DNA of 64,000 bases, from NCBI GenBank assembly GCA_026003175.1, contig BPGT01000002.1, positions 310,001 to 374,000 of the forward strand, written 5' to 3'. The DNA is from Armatimonadota bacterium (GTDB lineage Bacteria > Armatimonadota > HRBIN16). The number at the start of each line of letters is the position of its first letter. Positions within the stretch are counted from its first letter, which is position 1. The notes under the pieces were generated by a model that saw only the letters and a list, made by a program, of their open reading frames with translations, was not told where the DNA came from and made no database searches. Below are positions 14,594-47,696 of this stretch, piece after piece. A program made the translations under genes and the position numbers.

Positions 14594-14789
14594 TGGCTTC
14601 ACAATACGGTATGTGGTGGGGGGCAATCCCTGTCTTTGCTCCCCCTGCAGGTTTTGCAGATTGGTAGCGGTTACGGGGGGGTTCGTGAACAGAGACATTG
14701 GTAAACCTGTCGTACTCCTGACTTACCTCGTGTTCACTATTCTGAGGTGGACGCTCGCTCCCGCGATTGCCAGTATGGAGGATCCCACG

Positions 14790-17693
14790 ATGAACGCTGA
14801 AGTGCCTGAGAACGTTTACCGTTCAGAACTGGTCGCCTATCCGGGCGCATACGGGTTTGAAATCGGAAAATCCGCCATCATCCTGGTCAGCGACCGGGAG
14901 CTGGAGATGCTCTCCGACCCCGAGAGGGTGCTGAATCTCAGCCTCACTTTCGATAAACACGAAGCCAGCCTGCGCCAGATATGCGAGCGGGCGAAGGCGG
15001 CAGGGCATCGCACGCTCATTATCGCCTTTGACCATTTCTTCAGCCAGTACCGCCCCGGTCAGGCAGGACCGCGCCGCTACACGCCCGACATGGACGAGTA
15101 TGTACAGCGTATCGCCGGCATTGCAAAATTCGCACAAGGCTATGGCTTGGGACTGGAGCTCAGCCTGCTATCGCCGCTGGAGGTAGGACCCGCCTACCGC
15201 GCCCGCACAGGCGAATGTGGGGTGTGGATGCAATACCGCAAGGGCTTGCGCGACCCACAGACGGGCGCGTTCAGTGTGCAGCTGTGGCGACACAAACGCT
15301 GGGCGAACAACAAGGGTGTGGTGGAGCTGGAGGACGCGGGCGTACGTGTGTTTGCCTTTCGGGAACACCCGATACCTGGCACGCCTTACCGCGTGGTAGA
15401 CCCCAATGATATAGTGGAAATTAGTGAGGTAGCGAAGGTAGAAACGTTCCCGGGCGTTCAAGTACGGGCAGGGGACTTTACTGCCGAACGTATCCGCGTG
15501 TACGGCGAGGGGCGAACCGATGTGGGTAACCTGAACCGCGTGCTGGTAGTGCAGGTGTATCGCACACCCGAGATGGACTACTTTAGCGAGAAGGCTTTGC
15601 CGTTCTTGCAGTCGCTGGTGGATAAATACGCGGACGCAGGTGTGAAACTGAACGCGCTGTACTCTGACGAAATGCACATCCAGCAGGACTGGGCGTACTT
15701 TAACCATCACGAGCACGGCGAGTTTGCCATGCGCTACGTTACCGACAGCCTGGCGCGCCGCTATGCCCAGCTGTATGGCGATCAATATCGTGATTTCGCA
15801 AAATACCTTGTGTACTTCGCATATGCACAGGAAGATTTCGCCAGTGATTTGAGCGCGCGCCAGCCGGTGATGCACGTTTTTGGGGCGACGCCCGAAGCCA
15901 TCCGTGAAACCGCCCTCTTCCGTGCCCGCTACTACCGCCTGCTACAGGACGGTGTGGTAGAGCTGTTCGTTGCCGCTAAGCGCTACGCGGAGCAACGCAT
16001 GGGATACAAACTCGAAGCACGCGCCCATGCCACTTGGGCGGAAAGCCCCACAGTGGACTACTGGGACGCGGGGCAGGAGAACATGAACCGCCATAAGTAT
16101 GAGTACACCCCCAACTTTGTGTGGTCGGTGACGGTGCATCAGGCAGCATCAGCATGTTACGATTACTTTCGATGGGGCGATTTCTTAACTGGCAACGGCA
16201 ACGACCACTCGGAGGGTGGCTGGCTGGACAGGAACTACTATGGGCTCGCGCTGGGCTGTTCCACCGGCATCCTCAACGAAGTCCCCTACTCTTATGCGGC
16301 ACACTGGGGTTCTCCACAGGAAATCGCCCAGAGGCACTGGTGGCTACAGTGTGCATACGGAACCGCCGGGGGATATCATGGGCGCGTGCAGGGGATGCAG
16401 CACCGGGCGGTAGAGGTGCTGATGCTGTATCCGCTGGACCTGGTGGCGGTGGAAGAACGGTTCGGCAGCTGGATGACGCAGTACGGTTACGCCAACTACA
16501 TCACACAGTGGAAGCTGCTGGAGCAGGGTAAGCTGGAAGGCGGGGCTATCCACATTGGAGACTATCGCTTTACCACGCTGATTGCGTTGTTTGAGCCTTT
16601 CCCCTCGCGCAGAACGCTGGAGCTGATGCAGAAGATGGCGGATGCAGGTGGGCGGGTGATATGGTCGGGACCTCCGCCGGTGCTCACCGCTGAGGGCGAA
16701 CCGGCACTCCCGCTGTGGCAACAGATTTTCGGCGTGCGCTATACACCCAGACAGAGCGAGGGTATCGCCGTGCCCGGACGAGTGGTGACTTTCGCTGGAA
16801 CGCTGAAAGAAGTCACCCCACAAACCATCCTGACTGACTTTCTGGTAGACCACATCTACCCTGTAGAGGTGGAGCAGGGCACCGAGCCGGTGGCTTACGT
16901 TGGTAAACAGATGGTAGGTACTCTCAGGCGCACCGCCAGCGGGGGTATCGCAGCCTTTCTCGGCTACCGTCCGCGCGATGACCAGTCACGCAGTCTGGGA
17001 TACGATGTCCGCAACTGGTATGAAATACTGAATGCGCTGGGGGCTTATCTGCCAACAGGCAGGTTCGCCGATGTGAACGACAATACCGAGCATCTATCGC
17101 GCACAGGGCAGTATCTGGTCACCCGCTTCCCAAACGGCGCGATCTCCATGGCACCCCATACGCGCGATATTGTGGAGGACTGGGGCGGCGGCTTCGCCCG
17201 AAACAGGCAGGAGGACGAGCAGGTGCTGCAGAGGCTTAAACTGCCTTCGGAGCGGGTAGAGGTGAGGGAGTTCTCTGTGAACGGTCACCGCGTGACCTAC
17301 AACGGAAGGGGCACGGTCAGTTTCCGCGTAGACCAGCAAGGCGAACTGGTTGCCTTCTGCGGTTCAGACAGCACAGAGATAGAGGTGGACGGTAAGCTCT
17401 ACCGCTTCGCCGAGCGAATCGGCGAAACCCCGATTGCGCTGGTGGTATGGGCGCCTGTTGCTCCCGAGCGACAGGTTCCCAACGGGGCAGTGATGGAGAT
17501 ACAGGTGCACGGAGCGGCACGGCTGATGCTCTCTGAGAGGTTGTTTCCCAAAGAGTTTCGGCTGTTCCTCGAAGGGGCAACGCCCGGCAGTAAAGGGCAC
17601 GAAGTACCCTTCCGCCATGAAGGGGGTAAGGTGATAATCGATGTGACCCCGGATTTGTCGGGCAGATGGATGTTTGTAGTTGCCGGGGGGTAA
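14790..17693 (+). CDS. Large glycosidase-like protein, family unassigned
   Basis: 967 residues, no signal peptide at the chosen start. A central region of roughly 450 residues has barrel-like features with acidic residues in conserved-looking contexts (LYSDEMHI near residue 290, HATWAESPTVDYWD near residue 415). It is followed by a Rossmann-like segment (LFEPFPSRRTLELMQKMADAGGRVIWSGPPP, around residue 605), as in the middle domain of some beta-galactosidase-type enzymes, and by C-terminal beta modules. I think it is a carbohydrate-active enzyme but cannot name a GH family. The start is ATG 14790, with GGAGG 9 bases upstream; the open frame extends back to 14613 without similarity support. Confidence 0.65.
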   Translation: MNAEVPENVYRSELVAYPGAYGFEIGKSAIILVSDRELEMLSDPERVLNLSLTFDKHEASLRQICERAKAAGHRTLIIAFDHFFSQYRPGQAGPRRYTPDMDEYVQRIAGIAKFAQGYGLGLELSLLSPLEVGPAYRARTGECGVWMQYRKGLRDPQTGAFSVQLWRHKRWANNKGVVELEDAGVRVFAFREHPIPGTPYRVVDPNDIVEISEVAKVETFPGVQVRAGDFTAERIRVYGEGRTDVGNLNRVLVVQVYRTPEMDYFSEKALPFLQSLVDKYADAGVKLNALYSDEMHIQQDWAYFNHHEHGEFAMRYVTDSLARRYAQLYGDQYRDFAKYLVYFAYAQEDFASDLSARQPVMHVFGATPEAIRETALFRARYYRLLQDGVVELFVAAKRYAEQRMGYKLEARAHATWAESPTVDYWDAGQENMNRHKYEYTPNFVWSVTVHQAASACYDYFRWGDFLTGNGNDHSEGGWLDRNYYGLALGCSTGILNEVPYSYAAHWGSPQEIAQRHWWLQCAYGTAGGYHGRVQGMQHRAVEVLMLYPLDLVAVEERFGSWMTQYGYANYITQWKLLEQGKLEGGAIHIGDYRFTTLIALFEPFPSRRTLELMQKMADAGGRVIWSGPPPVLTAEGEPALPLWQQIFGVRYTPRQSEGIAVPGRVVTFAGTLKEVTPQTILTDFLVDHIYPVEVEQGTEPVAYVGKQMVGTLRRTASGGIAAFLGYRPRDDQSRSLGYDVRNWYEILNALGAYLPTGRFADVNDNTEHLSRTGQYLVTRFPNGAISMAPHTRDIVEDWGGGFARNRQEDEQVLQRLKLPSERVEVREFSVNGHRVTYNGRGTVSFRVDQQGELVAFCGSDSTEIEVDGKLYRFAERIGETPIALVVWAPVAPERQVPNGAVMEIQVHGAARLMLSERLFPKEFRLFLEGATPGSKGHEVPFRHEGGKVIIDVTPDLSGRWMFVVAGG

Positions 17694-17970
17694 GGGATTT
17701 GTGGAGCTGGGGCGCTCATGTCCCGGTAATCGCATACCCCAAAACGTCAGGGCTACCGACAGTCACGCCCGACCGATCATTATCTTCATTATTTGTTGTA
17801 ATTATAGGTGTTACTAATCCATTATCAAGTATAAATACTTGTTTTTCTTCAATTTTTTCTAAACTTCATAAAAAACGGGGTTTTTGGTACGGGTTATGCA
17901 CCTATAAATAGATTGGGAAGTTCATTTTGGTGTAGTTAATCAATCCATGGCGGAGAGGAGGGTACATCTG
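17694..17970. other. AT-rich intergenic region with 7-bp inverted repeat
   Basis: The 277-base gap before the interrupted dockerin gene contains about 150 bases (17770-17920) of strongly AT-rich sequence, unlike the surrounding GC-rich DNA. It holds a perfect inverted repeat CAAGTAT-AA-ATACTTG (17826-17841) followed by a T-run, and a TATAAA (17903-17908) that could be a -10 box with no good -35. It probably carries the promoter or an operator of the downstream gene; no coding signal. Confidence 0.45.
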
Positions 17971-20364
17971 ATGGCTCTACGGGTTATCTGGCTTGCCTTG
18001 TTCCCGTTGTCTGTGCTCGCATCCGCCCTTGCGGGTACGGGCAGTATCGGCGTTTACGTTTACGACCTGAAAACAGGATCTGAGGTGCGCCAGTTCACCG
18101 CAAGGATCGTTGGCTCGCAAGGCACGGACATCACCCTGAACAGCGGTACCAACTATTATGTACGCTTCAACAATCTGTCCACACAAGAGACATTTACCCT
18201 GACCGTGTCGCGAGATGGCTACCATAGCCGTTCGATTCCTGCGATCATCGTGTCAAAAGGCAACACGCGCGATTTCTCGTTGGCTCTCACCCCAACCTCC
18301 GGCGCAGGTACGCCTTTTTCCATCCGAGGGCGGGTGGTGGATGCGGTCACGAACCAGCCAATACCGAACGCTACGGTAGAGGGCTATCGTGCTGCTGCGG
18401 GGCAGTCTTTCCGCCGTGTGTACGCTGTAACCGATAACCAGGGGCGATTTACTATCCCACAATGCGTTCCCGGTACCTACTGGTTTGTGGCGTATCGTGT
18501 GGGGTACAACCGCTCTCCCGACTTCGAACTGTCTGCCAGCGGCGAAGTGACCGACCTGCTGTTGCCCTGTACACCTTCCGGTGTGCCTCTTGGCAGCTGG
18601 CGGCTGGATCGCATTTATGACGCACTGGGAGGGCAGGAGCTGCGCGGTGGGGAATGTCTGCTGCGCAGTGAGGCAGGCTAGGTGCTTCGTTTCACCTTCT
18701 GGGCTGAGAGGCAGTTGGAACGCTTGCCCGCAAACCATGTCTACTCTGCCACCGTTCGCTACACGAATACCGATGTGACTTACCACCCATCTACACGCGT
18801 CGCTCTGCGGCTGGTTCAGGGCGAGGCAGTTTATGAATCCTTCTTTCTGGTGCCAGCGGGCGTGACGGTTGGTACGTTGACGGGTGTGGTGCGCAACATG
18901 CTGGATGGCTCGCCGGTTCCCAACGCCTGGGTACAGCTGCGCTACGGAGGCCGCCCGATTTATTCTATGTTTACCGACGCGCAGGGAAGGTACTCCTTCG
19001 CGAACGTACCCAGGGACTACCGGGGATTGAACCTGAACATCAGTAAGCCGGGGTGGCTTTCGTATACGTGGTCGATCCCTGCACTGAACGCGAGCAGCAC
19101 CACGATAGACCTGTTCACCTGCCCGAACTGGACTCCCGTGGGCAATCTGCGATTCTGGGTACGGGATGAGCCGGCAGGTTTCTTCGTCGATGGAGCTACC
19201 CTGCGTATCACGCTGCCAACAGGTCAGAGTACCCTACTCGACATGGGCAGCGGAAATAGCATCCTAGTTAGCGGACTCCCTGCATGGATGTATTACGACC
19301 TGACTGTGAGCGCAGCAGGCTATCGCGCCGCTACTTACCTGAGCCAGCCGGTACCGTTTAACTCGGAACGTGGGCTGGAATACCGTCTGCTCCGTGCTAG
19401 CCAGTCAGCTGGACGTCTGCTCGGTACTGTGCGCGACCTGATGACGGGCAATCCGGTACCGAATGCGAAGGTTTCCGCTTACAGGGAGGTGCGCACTAAT
19501 AGCGCGGGGCAGTATACGCTAGGCGACCTCCCCCTTGGCGTGCTGGATGTGACGGTACAAGCCTCTGGCTACCGAGCACGTGTGGTCTCTGTCGCCGTAC
19601 AGAGCGGCGATAACCCGCGCGATTTCTTTCTGGCGCCCGCGGAGTATCCCTCAGGGCGCGTATACGGCTACGTGCGCAGCGCGGTGGATAATGGCAGCGA
19701 AATACCGAACAGTACCGTGATTGCAGTGGCACCGAACGGTTTAACCCTGACTGACGACACCGGACCCAATAGTGGATGGTATGATTTTCCTGACCTGCCG
19801 CACGATATACCGTTCACGTTTACTGCCTCGTCGCCGGGGTGGACCTCCGCCAGCGTGGAAAACTACTGGCCGAGACTCAACGACTCGGCGCAAATCGACT
19901 TCTCTCTCAACCCGAGCTGGGGCATGGCTCGGAAGCAAACGCTTAAGGGAAACATCGTGCTGGAAGGCTTTGAGGGCGACCCAGCAACTGTGTGGCTAAC
20001 CGTAGAGGCTTATCAGCATGGTGCTCCAGTGTGGCGCGGCGACGTCCACCCACGCAGCGACGGCTCCTTTGAAGTGCATTGCCCAGTAGAAGGAATGGTA
20101 GACCTGCGCTTGAAAGCAGATCGTTGGATCAGCGTCTGGCTGGACGGATACGACCTGCGCAACCGACAACTGCCCACGCTTATCTTCTCCGAGCTGGGGG
20201 ATACGAATAACGACGATAGCGTAGACCTCTTCGATTTCGGTGAACTGGTACAGCGCTTCGGACAAAAGGAGGTGAACCCACCGGACCTGAACGGCGACGG
20301 CTGGGTGGACCTGTCGGATGTGTTGCTCATGATTTCCCACTTCGGTGCCATGGGACGCCAGTGA
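17971..20364 (+). pseudogene. Secreted carboxypeptidase-regulatory-like repeat protein with C-terminal dockerin, interrupted by in-frame TAG
   Basis: One continuous frame of 798 codons, broken only by TAG at 18679-18681. Residues 1-24 are a signal peptide (start ATG 17971 behind GAGGAGGG; an ATG at 17947 precedes that Shine-Dalgarno). Several repeats of about 90 residues of the carboxypeptidase-regulatory/CnaB-like type follow (pattern G-x-V-x-D-x-x-T-x-x-P-I-P-N-A). The end holds a dockerin type-I-like pair (DTNNDDSVDLFDFGELV and DLNGDGWVDLSDVLLM). The TAG falls inside a repeat. In the equivalent repeat of the neighbour at 20379 the position is Trp, and in a later repeat of the same gene it is Gln, so TGG or CAG became TAG by one transition. 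The 560 codons after the stop are undamaged, starting with a GTG that has no Shine-Dalgarno. Options: recent mutation, sequencing error, or readthrough. Confidence 0.75.
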
Positions 20365-20378
20365 AAGGAGGAGACACG

Positions 20379-22763
20379 ATGAAGACCGGATGGACGCTTT
20401 CGCTCATAGCCGTATTGTTCACCTCGTGGTGTTGGGCACAGCCTAAAGCCACACTGCGCGTGGAGGTGTACGATATCGTAACGGGTAGCAATTTGAGCCA
20501 GGCGACCGTGCGAGTGGTCAGTTCGGATAACAGTATTGACCGCACAGCGAGCACTGGCAGCGGAAACGCAGTGAGCTTTACCGGCCTGCCCATCACACTG
20601 AGCTATCGAGTGACTGTCTCGCGCGCCGAATACCGCGAGCGTAGCTTGGAAGGTATTATCCTCGAGCGTGACACAACCAATTATGTGTCGTGCTTCCTCA
20701 CCAGCACCTTGCAAACGGTAGGTTCGGTAGCGGGCACAGTGCGTGACGCACTCTCCGGACAACCGTTGGCGGGTGCCATCGTGACGGCAAATCTCTCCGG
20801 GCGCGTGGTGTGGGCGTTGACTGATAGCAATGGAGTGTATCGTGTCGACAATCTACCGCGCGCCACGTATGCGATGGGAGCAGACGCGCGTGGCTACCAC
20901 TCGCAGGGTGCTTCTGCCAGCGTGACGCCCGGTGCGATAACCACCACCGACATGGTGCTGACGCCCCTGACGGAGCCGGTGGGTACCCTGCGCGGGCGTA
21001 CTTACGATCTGCTCTCGGGAGGCAACGTCAACAACGCCACGGTCACTCTGATAAGTGATCTCGGCTGGAGCCTCACGGTGAACACAGGTGGGGGAAACAG
21101 TTACCAGTGGACGAACTTGCCGGTGCGCACCCGTTACCGCCTTGCCTCTACCGCCGAAAACTACCGAACCAGCAGCAGGGTAAACATCGTGCTCTCGACC
21201 GACGATACTACAGATGTAGACCTGTTCATGGCATCTGTGTTGACTTCAGTGGGAACGCTGACGGGGCGCATTTACGACATCCGTACGGGGAGCCCCATCC
21301 CGGGCGCGTTTGTGCGAGTGGCGACAAGTGGGCGACCCATCAGCGTGTTCACCGACAACAATGGGGTGTACGAGATAAACGACCTGCCACCCATCCAGTA
21401 TCAGCTCTATGCAAGCGCCTCCGCCTACTACGATCAGACGCTGGACAATGTATCGGTGCAGCAGGGGACGAACACCGCGAATGTGTTGTTAACCCCGCTG
21501 GATATGCCCGTAGGGGCATGGCGATTCCGGGCGCTCGACTTCGGCACCGGTGGTAATGTGAACAATGTCGTCATCCGAATCACCGCCCCGAACGGATTGT
21601 CGATGACCACATCCAGCGGTGCAGGGGGCAACACCGATGACATAGGTAACCTGCCGGTGGGTATGTTATTCCGCGTGGAGGCATTTGCTCCCAACTACCG
21701 CAGCCGTCTATACGACAATCGTACAGTACGGCGTGGCCAGCTGGACGAGCTCCAGCTATGGCTGGTATCCGAGGACATCAACGTCGGACGGTTGCAAGGG
21801 CGCGTAACCGACCTGTTTACCGGTAGCGGTATCCCCAATGCCTATGTGTTCCTCTCACAAGTTAACACAGGGCGGTGGGCGTTGGTTTACACCGACATTA
21901 ACGGCGAGTTTTCCATCAACGATCTGCTACCTACCACCTACCACATTTACATTGGAGGCGCGGGTTACTACGAAAACATCGCCTATAACATCCCGATTGC
22001 GGTAGGCGACAACCTGTTGGAGTATGCGCTCACGCCATTCAACTACCCGTCGGGACGGCTATATGGGGACGTCATCAACGCCGCCAACAATCAGGGCATC
22101 TCCAACGCGGTGGTATTGTTGGTTGCCAGCACCGGAACCGCACGCCTGACCTACACAGGCAGCGGAAGCCAGTTCAACTTTTACAATTTGGCGTACGACC
22201 TCACTTATACGGTTGTTGGGCGCGCGGCAGGCTTTCAACCGGGGCAGGTGAGCAACATCGAGGTACCTGCCTTTGGAGAGGTGTACATCCGCCTCTTACT
22301 CAACGCCGGTCAGGATGGGCTAATAGGGCGTCTGGTATTGCAGGACTTCGAGGGCGATCCGGTAGGCATTCAGGCACTGGTGCAGATTCGTGATCGCGAC
22401 ACGGGGCAGGTGATACGCGAGGAGCTGGTGACCCTGGGCGAATCGGGGGCGTTGGTCATTCCGAATGTGCCAGCGGGCACATACAAGGTATGGAACAAGG
22501 CGAGCCACTGGCTGTCAAGTCTCACCGATGGTATCACCATACCCAACCTGCTGCCGGTAGCGTTCCTGTCGGGCCCGAATGGCGATATCGACAATGATAA
22601 CGAGATCACGCTGTTCGATTTCGGGCAACTGGTAGCGGCATTTGGCAGCATCCCCGGCGACTCCAACTGGAACCCTAACGCCGACTTGGATGGCGACCTG
22701 GAGGTGACCCTATTCGACTTTGGGATACTCGTTCAGAACTTTGGGGAGATTGGGGAGGAGTAG
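20379..22763 (+). CDS. Secreted carboxypeptidase-regulatory-like repeat protein with C-terminal dockerin
   Basis: 794 residues. Signal peptide 1-20 (MKTGWTLSLIAVLF, cleavage after CWA). About seven tandem beta-sandwich repeats of around 90 residues follow, alternating two subtypes: one with G-x-x-x-G-x-V-x-D-x-x-S-G-x-P (carboxypeptidase regulatory-like), the other with YDLLSGGNVNNATV-type motifs. The last 60 residues hold two calcium-loop segments (DIDNDNEITLFDFGQLV and DLDGDLEVTLFDFGILV), a dockerin type-I-like module. ATG 20379 follows AAAGGAGG, 14 bases after the stop of the interrupted paralogue, so the two form a tandem duplicate operon. Expected to be exported and bound to a cohesin-like or surface partner; no cohesin is in the window. 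Stop is TAG. Confidence 0.85.
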   Translation: MKTGWTLSLIAVLFTSWCWAQPKATLRVEVYDIVTGSNLSQATVRVVSSDNSIDRTASTGSGNAVSFTGLPITLSYRVTVSRAEYRERSLEGIILERDTTNYVSCFLTSTLQTVGSVAGTVRDALSGQPLAGAIVTANLSGRVVWALTDSNGVYRVDNLPRATYAMGADARGYHSQGASASVTPGAITTTDMVLTPLTEPVGTLRGRTYDLLSGGNVNNATVTLISDLGWSLTVNTGGGNSYQWTNLPVRTRYRLASTAENYRTSSRVNIVLSTDDTTDVDLFMASVLTSVGTLTGRIYDIRTGSPIPGAFVRVATSGRPISVFTDNNGVYEINDLPPIQYQLYASASAYYDQTLDNVSVQQGTNTANVLLTPLDMPVGAWRFRALDFGTGGNVNNVVIRITAPNGLSMTTSSGAGGNTDDIGNLPVGMLFRVEAFAPNYRSRLYDNRTVRRGQLDELQLWLVSEDINVGRLQGRVTDLFTGSGIPNAYVFLSQVNTGRWALVYTDINGEFSINDLLPTTYHIYIGGAGYYENIAYNIPIAVGDNLLEYALTPFNYPSGRLYGDVINAANNQGISNAVVLLVASTGTARLTYTGSGSQFNFYNLAYDLTYTVVGRAAGFQPGQVSNIEVPAFGEVYIRLLLNAGQDGLIGRLVLQDFEGDPVGIQALVQIRDRDTGQVIREELVTLGESGALVIPNVPAGTYKVWNKASHWLSSLTDGITIPNLLPVAFLSGPNGDIDNDNEITLFDFGQLVAAFGSIPGDSNWNPNADLDGDLEVTLFDFGILVQNFGEIGEE

Positions 22764-22771
22764 CAGGCGGC

Positions 22772-22800
22772 TTGACGTGCGCCCAAATTTGGACTATAAT
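22772..22800 (+). promoter_or_regulatory. Strong sigma-70-type promoter of tRNA-Pro
   Basis: TTGACG (22772-22777), 17-base spacer, TATAAT (22795-22800). Transcription would start about 8 bases before the mature tRNA 5' end. Confidence 0.85.
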
Positions 22801-22814
22801 AATAGCGCGATGGT

Positions 22815-22891
22815 CGGGGTGTAGCTCAGGTTGGTAGAGCGCCTGGTTTGGGACCAGGAGGTCGCTGGTTCGAGTCCAGTCACCCCGACCA
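22815..22891 (+). tRNA. tRNA-Pro (anticodon UGG)
   Basis: 77 bases with the CCA encoded. Acceptor stem CGGGGTG/CACCCCG is perfect, followed by discriminator A and CCA. The D arm is GTAGCTCAGG-TTGGTAGAGC. The anticodon stem CCTGG/CCAGG encloses TTTGGGA with TGG at 22849-22851. The T arm is CTGG-TTCGAGT-CCAG. It is downstream of its own near-consensus promoter and convergent with fliR. Confidence 0.97.
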
Positions 22892-46281: not shown

Positions 46282-47475
46282 TCAGGCTTTGCGTCGTCGC
46301 AAGAACAGCCCGGCCACGCCCGCGCCCAGAATCACCAGCGATGCCGGCTCCGGAACCGCCTGAAAGATATCCAGCCGGTCAATTGTGCCAGCAGGTGAGC
46401 CGGGGGTGTGTCCGCTTACCACGAACAGCAGCAGCTTACCGTCCTGCGTCTGGTAGGGGAAGGCGTTGATGAGGTTGTGCTTGTACTCGCCAAGGTCTAC
46501 GCCGTCTTCTGTCAAGCCCGATCCGTCGATTTGCAACACCACCGTACCGTCAAGCGTGGCAAGGAACAGCCTGTTGGTTTCGGCAGTGACGGCAGCAGGA
46601 CGGCGGTTGTATGCCAGCATATCACCCAGCGCGGGAAACACCTGCGAGCTGGGGATGTAGGTCACCGTGGCTTCCTGAAAGTTCCCTTCATCTACCGAGA
46701 TGATGTTGGAAAGGGTGCTGTAGCTATCGACGCCTGTGCGCTCGGCTTTGAAAATGCCGTCGTTAGCGTCGGCAGAAGCACGGTGGATGTATACGTCCCC
46801 GTTGGGCGCGAAGGCGATGTCGCGCAAGTAGGTTGGTCCTATCGCGTTGGAGCTACCCAGCAATGCTCCGGTCTCCAGCGAGAATCGTTTGATAGGCTGA
46901 GTTGCGGTCGTGCTCAACGAGGTCACTGCCAGGCTCGCCCCCGATCCGCCATAGCCGGGGTCGATCTCTATCGTGTCGTAGCGCCCGAAGCCCGCCTCGG
47001 TTAGCGACAGAACACCGTCTACCGCCCAGTCGGTGACTAGGGTGCCATCCGGCGTGAACTTGCGGATGGCGCTATCGGGACTGGTGCCCTGACCGAGCCC
47101 AGTACCAAGATAGAGATAGCCGTTGTGGTATACCAGACGAGTATCCCTGCCGCCGCCCGCTGCCGAAACCGCAATGATTCGGCTGACGCCTGGCGTTGCA
47201 GAGTTCACCGTGCCGCTGGGCAGGCTTAGCACGTTCTCCATGCGTACGACACCTACCGTCCCCAAACCGGACTGCGAGCGAAAGCCGGCAAGATAGGCGT
47301 TCGCGCCGTCGAACGTTACATCGATTACCGCGTCACCTGCGCCACTGGCGGATCCGTCAAAAAACGTGGACAGGTTGAACGCTCTGAGGTGCTTGAAAAC
47401 CGGCTGCGCCTGTACCGACGGAGCCAGCAGACACACTGCGACGACAAATACCACGAACCCTCGCAAGCGGAACAT
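46282..47475 (-). CDS. PEP-CTERM secreted protein
   Basis: 397 residues. Signal peptide 1-25 (basic MFRLR then FVVFVVAVCLL, cleavage near VQA). The body is beta-propeller-like in sequence (FDGANAYLAG, YLYLGTGLG, LRDIAFAPNGDVYIHR), without an assignable family. The C-terminus is a PEP-CTERM sorting signal: VPEPASLVILGAGVAGLFLRRRKA, with the PEP motif, a hydrophobic span and a basic tail. Such proteins are cut by an exosortase and often become extracellular-polysaccharide-associated. No exosortase (EpsH/XrtA) gene is in the window. ATG 47475 has AAAGGAG upstream; the open frame extends to 47553 without support. Confidence 0.88.
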   Translation of the reverse strand: MFRLRGFVVFVVAVCLLAPSVQAQPVFKHLRAFNLSTFFDGSASGAGDAVIDVTFDGANAYLAGFRSQSGLGTVGVVRMENVLSLPSGTVNSATPGVSRIIAVSAAGGGRDTRLVYHNGYLYLGTGLGQGTSPDSAIRKFTPDGTLVTDWAVDGVLSLTEAGFGRYDTIEIDPGYGGSGASLAVTSLSTTATQPIKRFSLETGALLGSSNAIGPTYLRDIAFAPNGDVYIHRASADANDGIFKAERTGVDSYSTLSNIISVDEGNFQEATVTYIPSSQVFPALGDMLAYNRRPAAVTAETNRLFLATLDGTVVLQIDGSGLTEDGVDLGEYKHNLINAFPYQTQDGKLLLFVVSGHTPGSPAGTIDRLDIFQAVPEPASLVILGAGVAGLFLRRRKA

Positions 47476-47696
47476 ATCCAGTCTCCTTTCACGATGGGCT
47501 AAGTTATATAACGCTTGTGGGTATATTATAGATGATGTCGTAGAAGGGGGCACCTCGTATAATTACCGGTTTTTCCCGAATCGACGGAACGAACTTTCCC
47601 TTGATACACAATGAAACCCGATACACTCATCGGCAAGACTATGATATACTATACTATATCAATCATCAAAATCACCTTTTGAAGGAGGAGATTCCG

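What the first reader, a model, noticed from the sequence alone, without database searches (positions are those of the whole stretch)
17971..20364. Single in-frame TAG splits an otherwise intact 797-codon dockerin protein
TAG at 18679-18681 is the only defect in a frame running from signal peptide to dockerin. The matching repeat of the downstream paralogue has Trp at that position (GWSL against G-stop-VL), and a later repeat of the same gene has Gln (TGQSTLL), so one transition (TGG or CAG to TAG) explains it. The 560 codons after it show no other damage. This fits a very recent mutation, a phase-variation or readthrough event giving short and long surface proteins, or a sequencing error. TAG is used as a normal stop by other genes in the window (for example 2577, 11531, 22763), so global recoding is not the explanation.
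Basis: partly seen in the sequence, partly recalled or inferred. Interest (0 to 1): 0.6.

Follow-up and report, generated by a model that had tools for sequence, protein, structure and literature searches.

The report
Recent stop mutation in secreted repeat protein
One copy of a secreted repeat-protein gene in a hot-spring bacterium of the HRBIN16 lineage carries a single stop codon where its two closest relatives encode tryptophan, which looks like an ordinary, very recent gene-breaking mutation (or a sequence error) rather than a new way of reading the code.

Summary
In detail: TAG at 18679-18681 is the only stop in a 797-codon frame (17971-20364) running from signal peptide to a dockerin-like C-terminus. 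Full-length orthologues exist in two same-genus genomes (86% and 80% identity). They have exactly 797 codons and no stop, and both have TGG (Trp) at codon 237. The event is therefore one G-to-A change in this lineage. The 560 codons after the stop show the same purifying selection as the 236 before it, so the stop is recent on the evolutionary scale, or is an assembly error, or is tolerated. I found no support for a special mechanism: none of the 50 tRNA genes detected reads UAG, RF1 is present, TAG ends 11 of 42 curated window genes, no downstream structure or conserved readthrough site was seen, and no repeat explains phase variation. About 40 other window genes compared with G004 show no comparable truncation. 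Raw reads, which I could not see, are needed to separate real mutation, strain polymorphism and error. The finding is ordinary. Side notes: the 140-residue C-terminal module recurs about 42 times in a genome with no detectable cohesin, and the locus lies at a synteny breakpoint next to tRNA-Pro.

The parts
17971..20364 (+). Interrupted gene: signal peptide, several CarboxypepD_reg-type beta repeats, C-terminal beta module plus dockerin-like calcium-loop repeat (797 codons including the internal TAG)
   Evidence: identical length in two orthologues
18679..18681 (+). In-frame TAG (codon 237); TGG (Trp) in both same-genus orthologues
17971..18681 (+). Predicted truncated product, 236 residues, ending part-way through the third repeat
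   Evidence: repeat boundary judged by eye
18682..20364 (+). 560-codon open frame after the stop, still under purifying selection; begins with a GTG directly after the TAG, with GAGG at 18670-18673; no signal peptide
20379..22763 (+). Intact downstream paralogue (ORF from 20361; likely start ATG 20379 after AAAGGAGGA), 32% identical to the interrupted protein, also paired with it in G003 and G004
22815..22891 (+). tRNA-Pro (TGG anticodon); end of the block that is collinear with G004

Best explanation
A recent G-to-A nonsense substitution (TGG to TAG, Trp237 to stop) in the lineage or strain sequenced. Translation ends at codon 237, leaving a 236-residue exported fragment that stops inside the third beta repeat and lacks the C-terminal dockerin-like module, so the allele is most likely a loss of function that has not yet decayed further. 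The nonsense change against relatives is shown; its reality in the cell, the loss of function and the fate of the fragment are inferred.
For: Orthologues G004 (86%) and G003 (80%) are full length with TGG at codon 237. NG86 dN/dS between G000 and G004 is 0.23 before and 0.17 after the stop. Changes assigned to the G000 branch: 22 synonymous/18 non-synonymous before, 64/51 after; G004 branch after: 48/34 (Fisher P = 1.0 and 0.77). A simulation of neutral substitutions reaches a second stop in this frame after 32 on average and 93 at the 95th percentile, 0.019 and 0.055 per site, against dS of about 0.42 for the pair, so an old dead gene is unlikely. No UAG-reading tRNA among 50 tRNA matches; RF1 present above cut-off.
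Against: A consensus error in an assembly would look the same. Purifying selection after the stop is equally what a tolerated, read-through stop would show. A mild cluster of G000-only residues lies at and just after the stop (codons 237, 238, 245, 246, 248; P about 0.07 in a crude shuffle), unexplained.
Confidence: 0.63

Rival explanations
1. Sequencing or consensus error, or a minority strain variant taken into the consensus; the cell's gene is intact.
For: Only defect in the frame; same selection on both sides of the stop; no comparable truncation in the other window genes compared with G004, so the site is an isolated event. Relatives of this lineage in public data are mostly metagenome-assembled genomes.
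Against: The same cleanliness of the other genes argues against a generally error-rich assembly. No homopolymer at the site; a substitution rather than an indel.
Confidence: 0.26
2. Tolerated or regulatory readthrough: near-cognate decoding of UAG gives a small amount of full-length anchored protein and mostly the short exported form.
For: Purifying selection continues after the stop. In-frame stops with low dN/dS have been reported as widespread in bacteria and proposed to lower expression (PMC7918605).
Against: The stop is not conserved in either relative; no CUA-anticodon tRNA found; RF1 present; the 79 nt after the stop fold no better than shuffles (z 0.82). A recent stop explains the low dN/dS equally well.
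Confidence: 0.07
3. Gene fission by termination and re-initiation: the ribosome stops at TAG and restarts at the GTG directly after it, helped by GAGG eight bases upstream, giving two polypeptides.
For: TAG-GTG adjacency and GAGG at 18670-18673. GTG is specific to this genome (ACG/ACA in relatives).
Against: The second polypeptide would have no signal peptide, so it could not reach the place where this secreted protein works; the break lies inside a repeat, not between repeats; a start codon after a stop is expected by chance in several per cent of cases (rough estimate).
Confidence: 0.03
4. Phase variation switching between short and long surface proteins.
For: Surface or secreted repeat protein, a class in which phase variation occurs (general knowledge).
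Against: No tandem repeat at the site, no repeat pair that would swap this codon; a single-base substitution is not a phase-variable change.
Confidence: 0.01

Closest known systems
Recent nonsense allele / young pseudogene in bacteria
   Same: Single in-frame stop, rest of the frame intact, functional orthologues in relatives.
   Different: No difference found; only the absence of read support keeps it open.
In-frame stops under purifying selection in bacterial genes (Belinky et al. 2021, PMC7918605)
   Same: dN/dS well below 1 on both sides of the stop.
   Different: Here the stop is seen in one genome only, so persistence of the stop under selection is not shown.
Dockerin-bearing secreted proteins of cellulosomes
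   Same: C-terminal duplicated calcium-loop-like repeat, Dockerin_1 just above cut-off.
   Different: No cohesin found in the genome; not shown to be cellulosomal.

Membership tests
Recent nonsense allele (young pseudogene) | Full-length orthologue with a sense codon at the site in close relatives | tested here: met
   TGG in G004 and G003, no stops
Recent nonsense allele (young pseudogene) | Stop truly present in the organism's DNA | not testable with these tools
   No raw reads
Recent nonsense allele (young pseudogene) | Downstream part free of decay, if recent | tested here: met
   No second stop or frameshift; selection unchanged
Programmed or tolerated UAG readthrough | Stop conserved among relatives | tested here: not met
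   TGG in both
Programmed or tolerated UAG readthrough | Dedicated UAG-reading tRNA | tested here: not met
   50 tRNA matches, none with anticodon CTA; four that ARAGORN did not call were read by eye; genome 97% complete, so a missed gene is possible
Programmed or tolerated UAG readthrough | Long product in the cell | not testable with these tools
   Needs mass spectrometry or a reporter
Global TAG reassignment | TAG rare as a stop, RF1 absent or altered | tested here: not met
   11 of 42 curated window genes end in TAG; prfA at 530.9 bits
Phase-variable gene | Repeat tract or invertible element at the switching site | tested here: not met
Cellulosomal dockerin protein | Cohesin partner in the genome | tested here: not met
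   PF00963, no match at E 0.001
Cellulosomal dockerin protein | Dockerin type I domain | tested here: met
   PF00404, 23.5 bits against 22.9, marginal

The most novel reading that the evidence does not exclude
The TAG is genuinely fixed in the population and is read through at low level, throttling the amount of full-length, module-bearing protein while a short exported form is made.
Probability: 0.06. Interest if true: 0.4.

Novelty: already known. Interest (0 to 1): 0.12.

Why it matters
Mostly as a caution: an isolated in-frame stop with an intact remainder is what a recent nonsense allele or a consensus error looks like, and comparison with two relatives settles the ancestral codon without invoking recoding. 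If readthrough were shown, it would be one more case for the proposal that in-frame stops in bacteria can lower expression without killing a gene.

Tried and rejected
Plasmid collection, megablast: no match. Genome-contig scan with the protein: no relative found, with near records possibly withheld. Suppressor tRNA: none found. Global recoding: rejected. Phase variation: rejected. Downstream RNA structure: none beyond shuffles; Rfam finds only the tRNA in the window. The densest run of G000-specific bases in the gene (12 in 45 nt, P 0.0055) lies near codon 410, not at the stop, so the mild residue cluster at the stop (P about 0.07) was not taken as a signal. Other stops in the G004 comparison were read as artefacts: one lies before the start of this gene, one near the start of an ORF, one 8 residues from the end of an ORF, and one in a frame on the wrong strand; these were judged from position and not examined further.

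Full report
Observation. The frame 17971-20364 was translated directly: 797 codons, one internal stop, TAG at 18679-18681 (codon 237), then 560 open codons to TGA. The assembled genome shows the same.

What it encodes. Read through for searching only, the protein has a signal peptide, several repeats matching CarboxypepD_reg (170.5 bits, four stretches), and a C-terminal Dockerin_1 match that just passes its cut-off (23.5 against 22.9 bits). The NCBIfam hit to an anammox S-layer glycoprotein is far below that model's cut-off and reflects the shared repeat. An intact paralogue, 32% identical, follows directly, and the pair is kept together in both relatives. The genome has no detectable cohesin, so calling this a cellulosomal protein would not be justified.

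Where it comes from. The HrcA protein of the window is 75-90% identical to HrcA of a group of bacteria that includes Bacterium HR16 (HRbin16) and Armatimonadetes genome bins. Literature places HRBIN16 as a class-level Armatimonadota clade found in hot springs, rich in glycoside hydrolases (PMC9671151). The placement of this genome in that lineage is inferred from HrcA alone.

Relatives. Among 41 genomes searched, two of the nine other same-genus genomes hold full-length orthologues: G004 at 86% and G003 at 80% identity, both stop-free. After orienting G003 correctly, all three align without gaps over 797 codons, and codon 237 is TGG in both relatives. An earlier comparison used G003 on the wrong strand and its G003 figures are to be ignored. 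The simplest history is one TGG-to-TAG change on the branch leading to this genome.

Selection. By Nei-Gojobori counts, dN/dS between this genome and G004 is 0.23 before and 0.17 after the stop; against G003 it is 0.105 and 0.118. Bases assigned to this branch by using G003 as outgroup give 22 synonymous and 18 non-synonymous before the stop and 64 and 51 after it; the G004 branch gives 25/24 and 48/34. None of these contrasts differs (Fisher P = 1.0 and 0.77). A simple neutral simulation meets a second stop after 32 substitutions on average, 93 at the 95th percentile, that is 0.019-0.055 per site, while synonymous divergence of the pair is about 0.42. The stop is therefore either much younger than the split from G004, or not real, or tolerated. 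The simulation is crude (fixed 2:1 weighting of transitions, no indels).

Decoding. The tRNA family search found 50 matches. ARAGORN names no anticodon that reads UAG; the four matches it did not call were printed and read by eye as GAC, TCC, CAT and GCC (sequences). RF1 is present at 530.9 bits. TAG ends 11 of 42 curated window genes. None of the 41 other places in the genome that match the protein contains a stop. The 79 bases after the TAG fold no better than shuffles. Together these remove global recoding and give no support to a dedicated suppressor.

Base rate. Forty-one matches between G004 ORFs and the window, about 15,700 residues, were examined for stops. Apart from this gene, stops occurred only near the ends of ORFs or in a frame on the wrong strand; these were judged by position. 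Isolated nonsense changes of this kind are ordinary in bacterial genomes (general knowledge; see also PMC7918605).

Other mechanisms. No tandem repeat lies at the site and the repeat pairs found are short, diverged gene-internal matches, so phase variation has no substrate. A GTG directly follows the TAG with GAGG eight bases upstream, which would allow re-initiation, but the resulting protein would lack a signal peptide; this is kept as a low-probability rival.

Verdict. An ordinary, recent nonsense substitution or a consensus error. Which of the two cannot be decided without reads. The rest of the argument does not depend on that choice.

Noticed in passing
window 19921-20361 (residues about 655-797) and about 41 other places in G000, e.g. 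L003-L012: A C-terminal module of about 140 residues, a beta region plus a duplicated (N/D)GDxDGD-NEVTLFDFG...FGAxG motif, ends many secreted proteins with unrelated N-terminal parts. It is common in all ten same-genus genomes and rare or absent elsewhere in the phylum sample. With no cohesin detected, it may be a lineage-specific sorting or anchoring tag; function untested.
   Followed up: partly
window 17680-17824 and 22891: Gene order relative to G004 breaks on both sides of the pair plus tRNA-Pro: window 3-17680 matches G004 in inverted order about 30 kb away, while 17824-22891 is collinear elsewhere. The block may be a rearranged or mobile segment beside a tRNA gene.
   Followed up: no
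window 18679-18714 (codons 237-248): Five residues unique to this genome fall within 12 codons at and just after the stop (P about 0.07); not significant, unexplained.
   Followed up: partly
window 46282-47553, minus strand: Protein with a PEP-CTERM sorting signal at its C-terminus (TIGR02595, 26 bits against 16), so this genome seems to carry a second, different C-terminal sorting tag.
   Followed up: no
window 14613-17693: 1026-residue protein directly upstream with no Pfam or NCBIfam match although 91% identical in G004.
   Followed up: no
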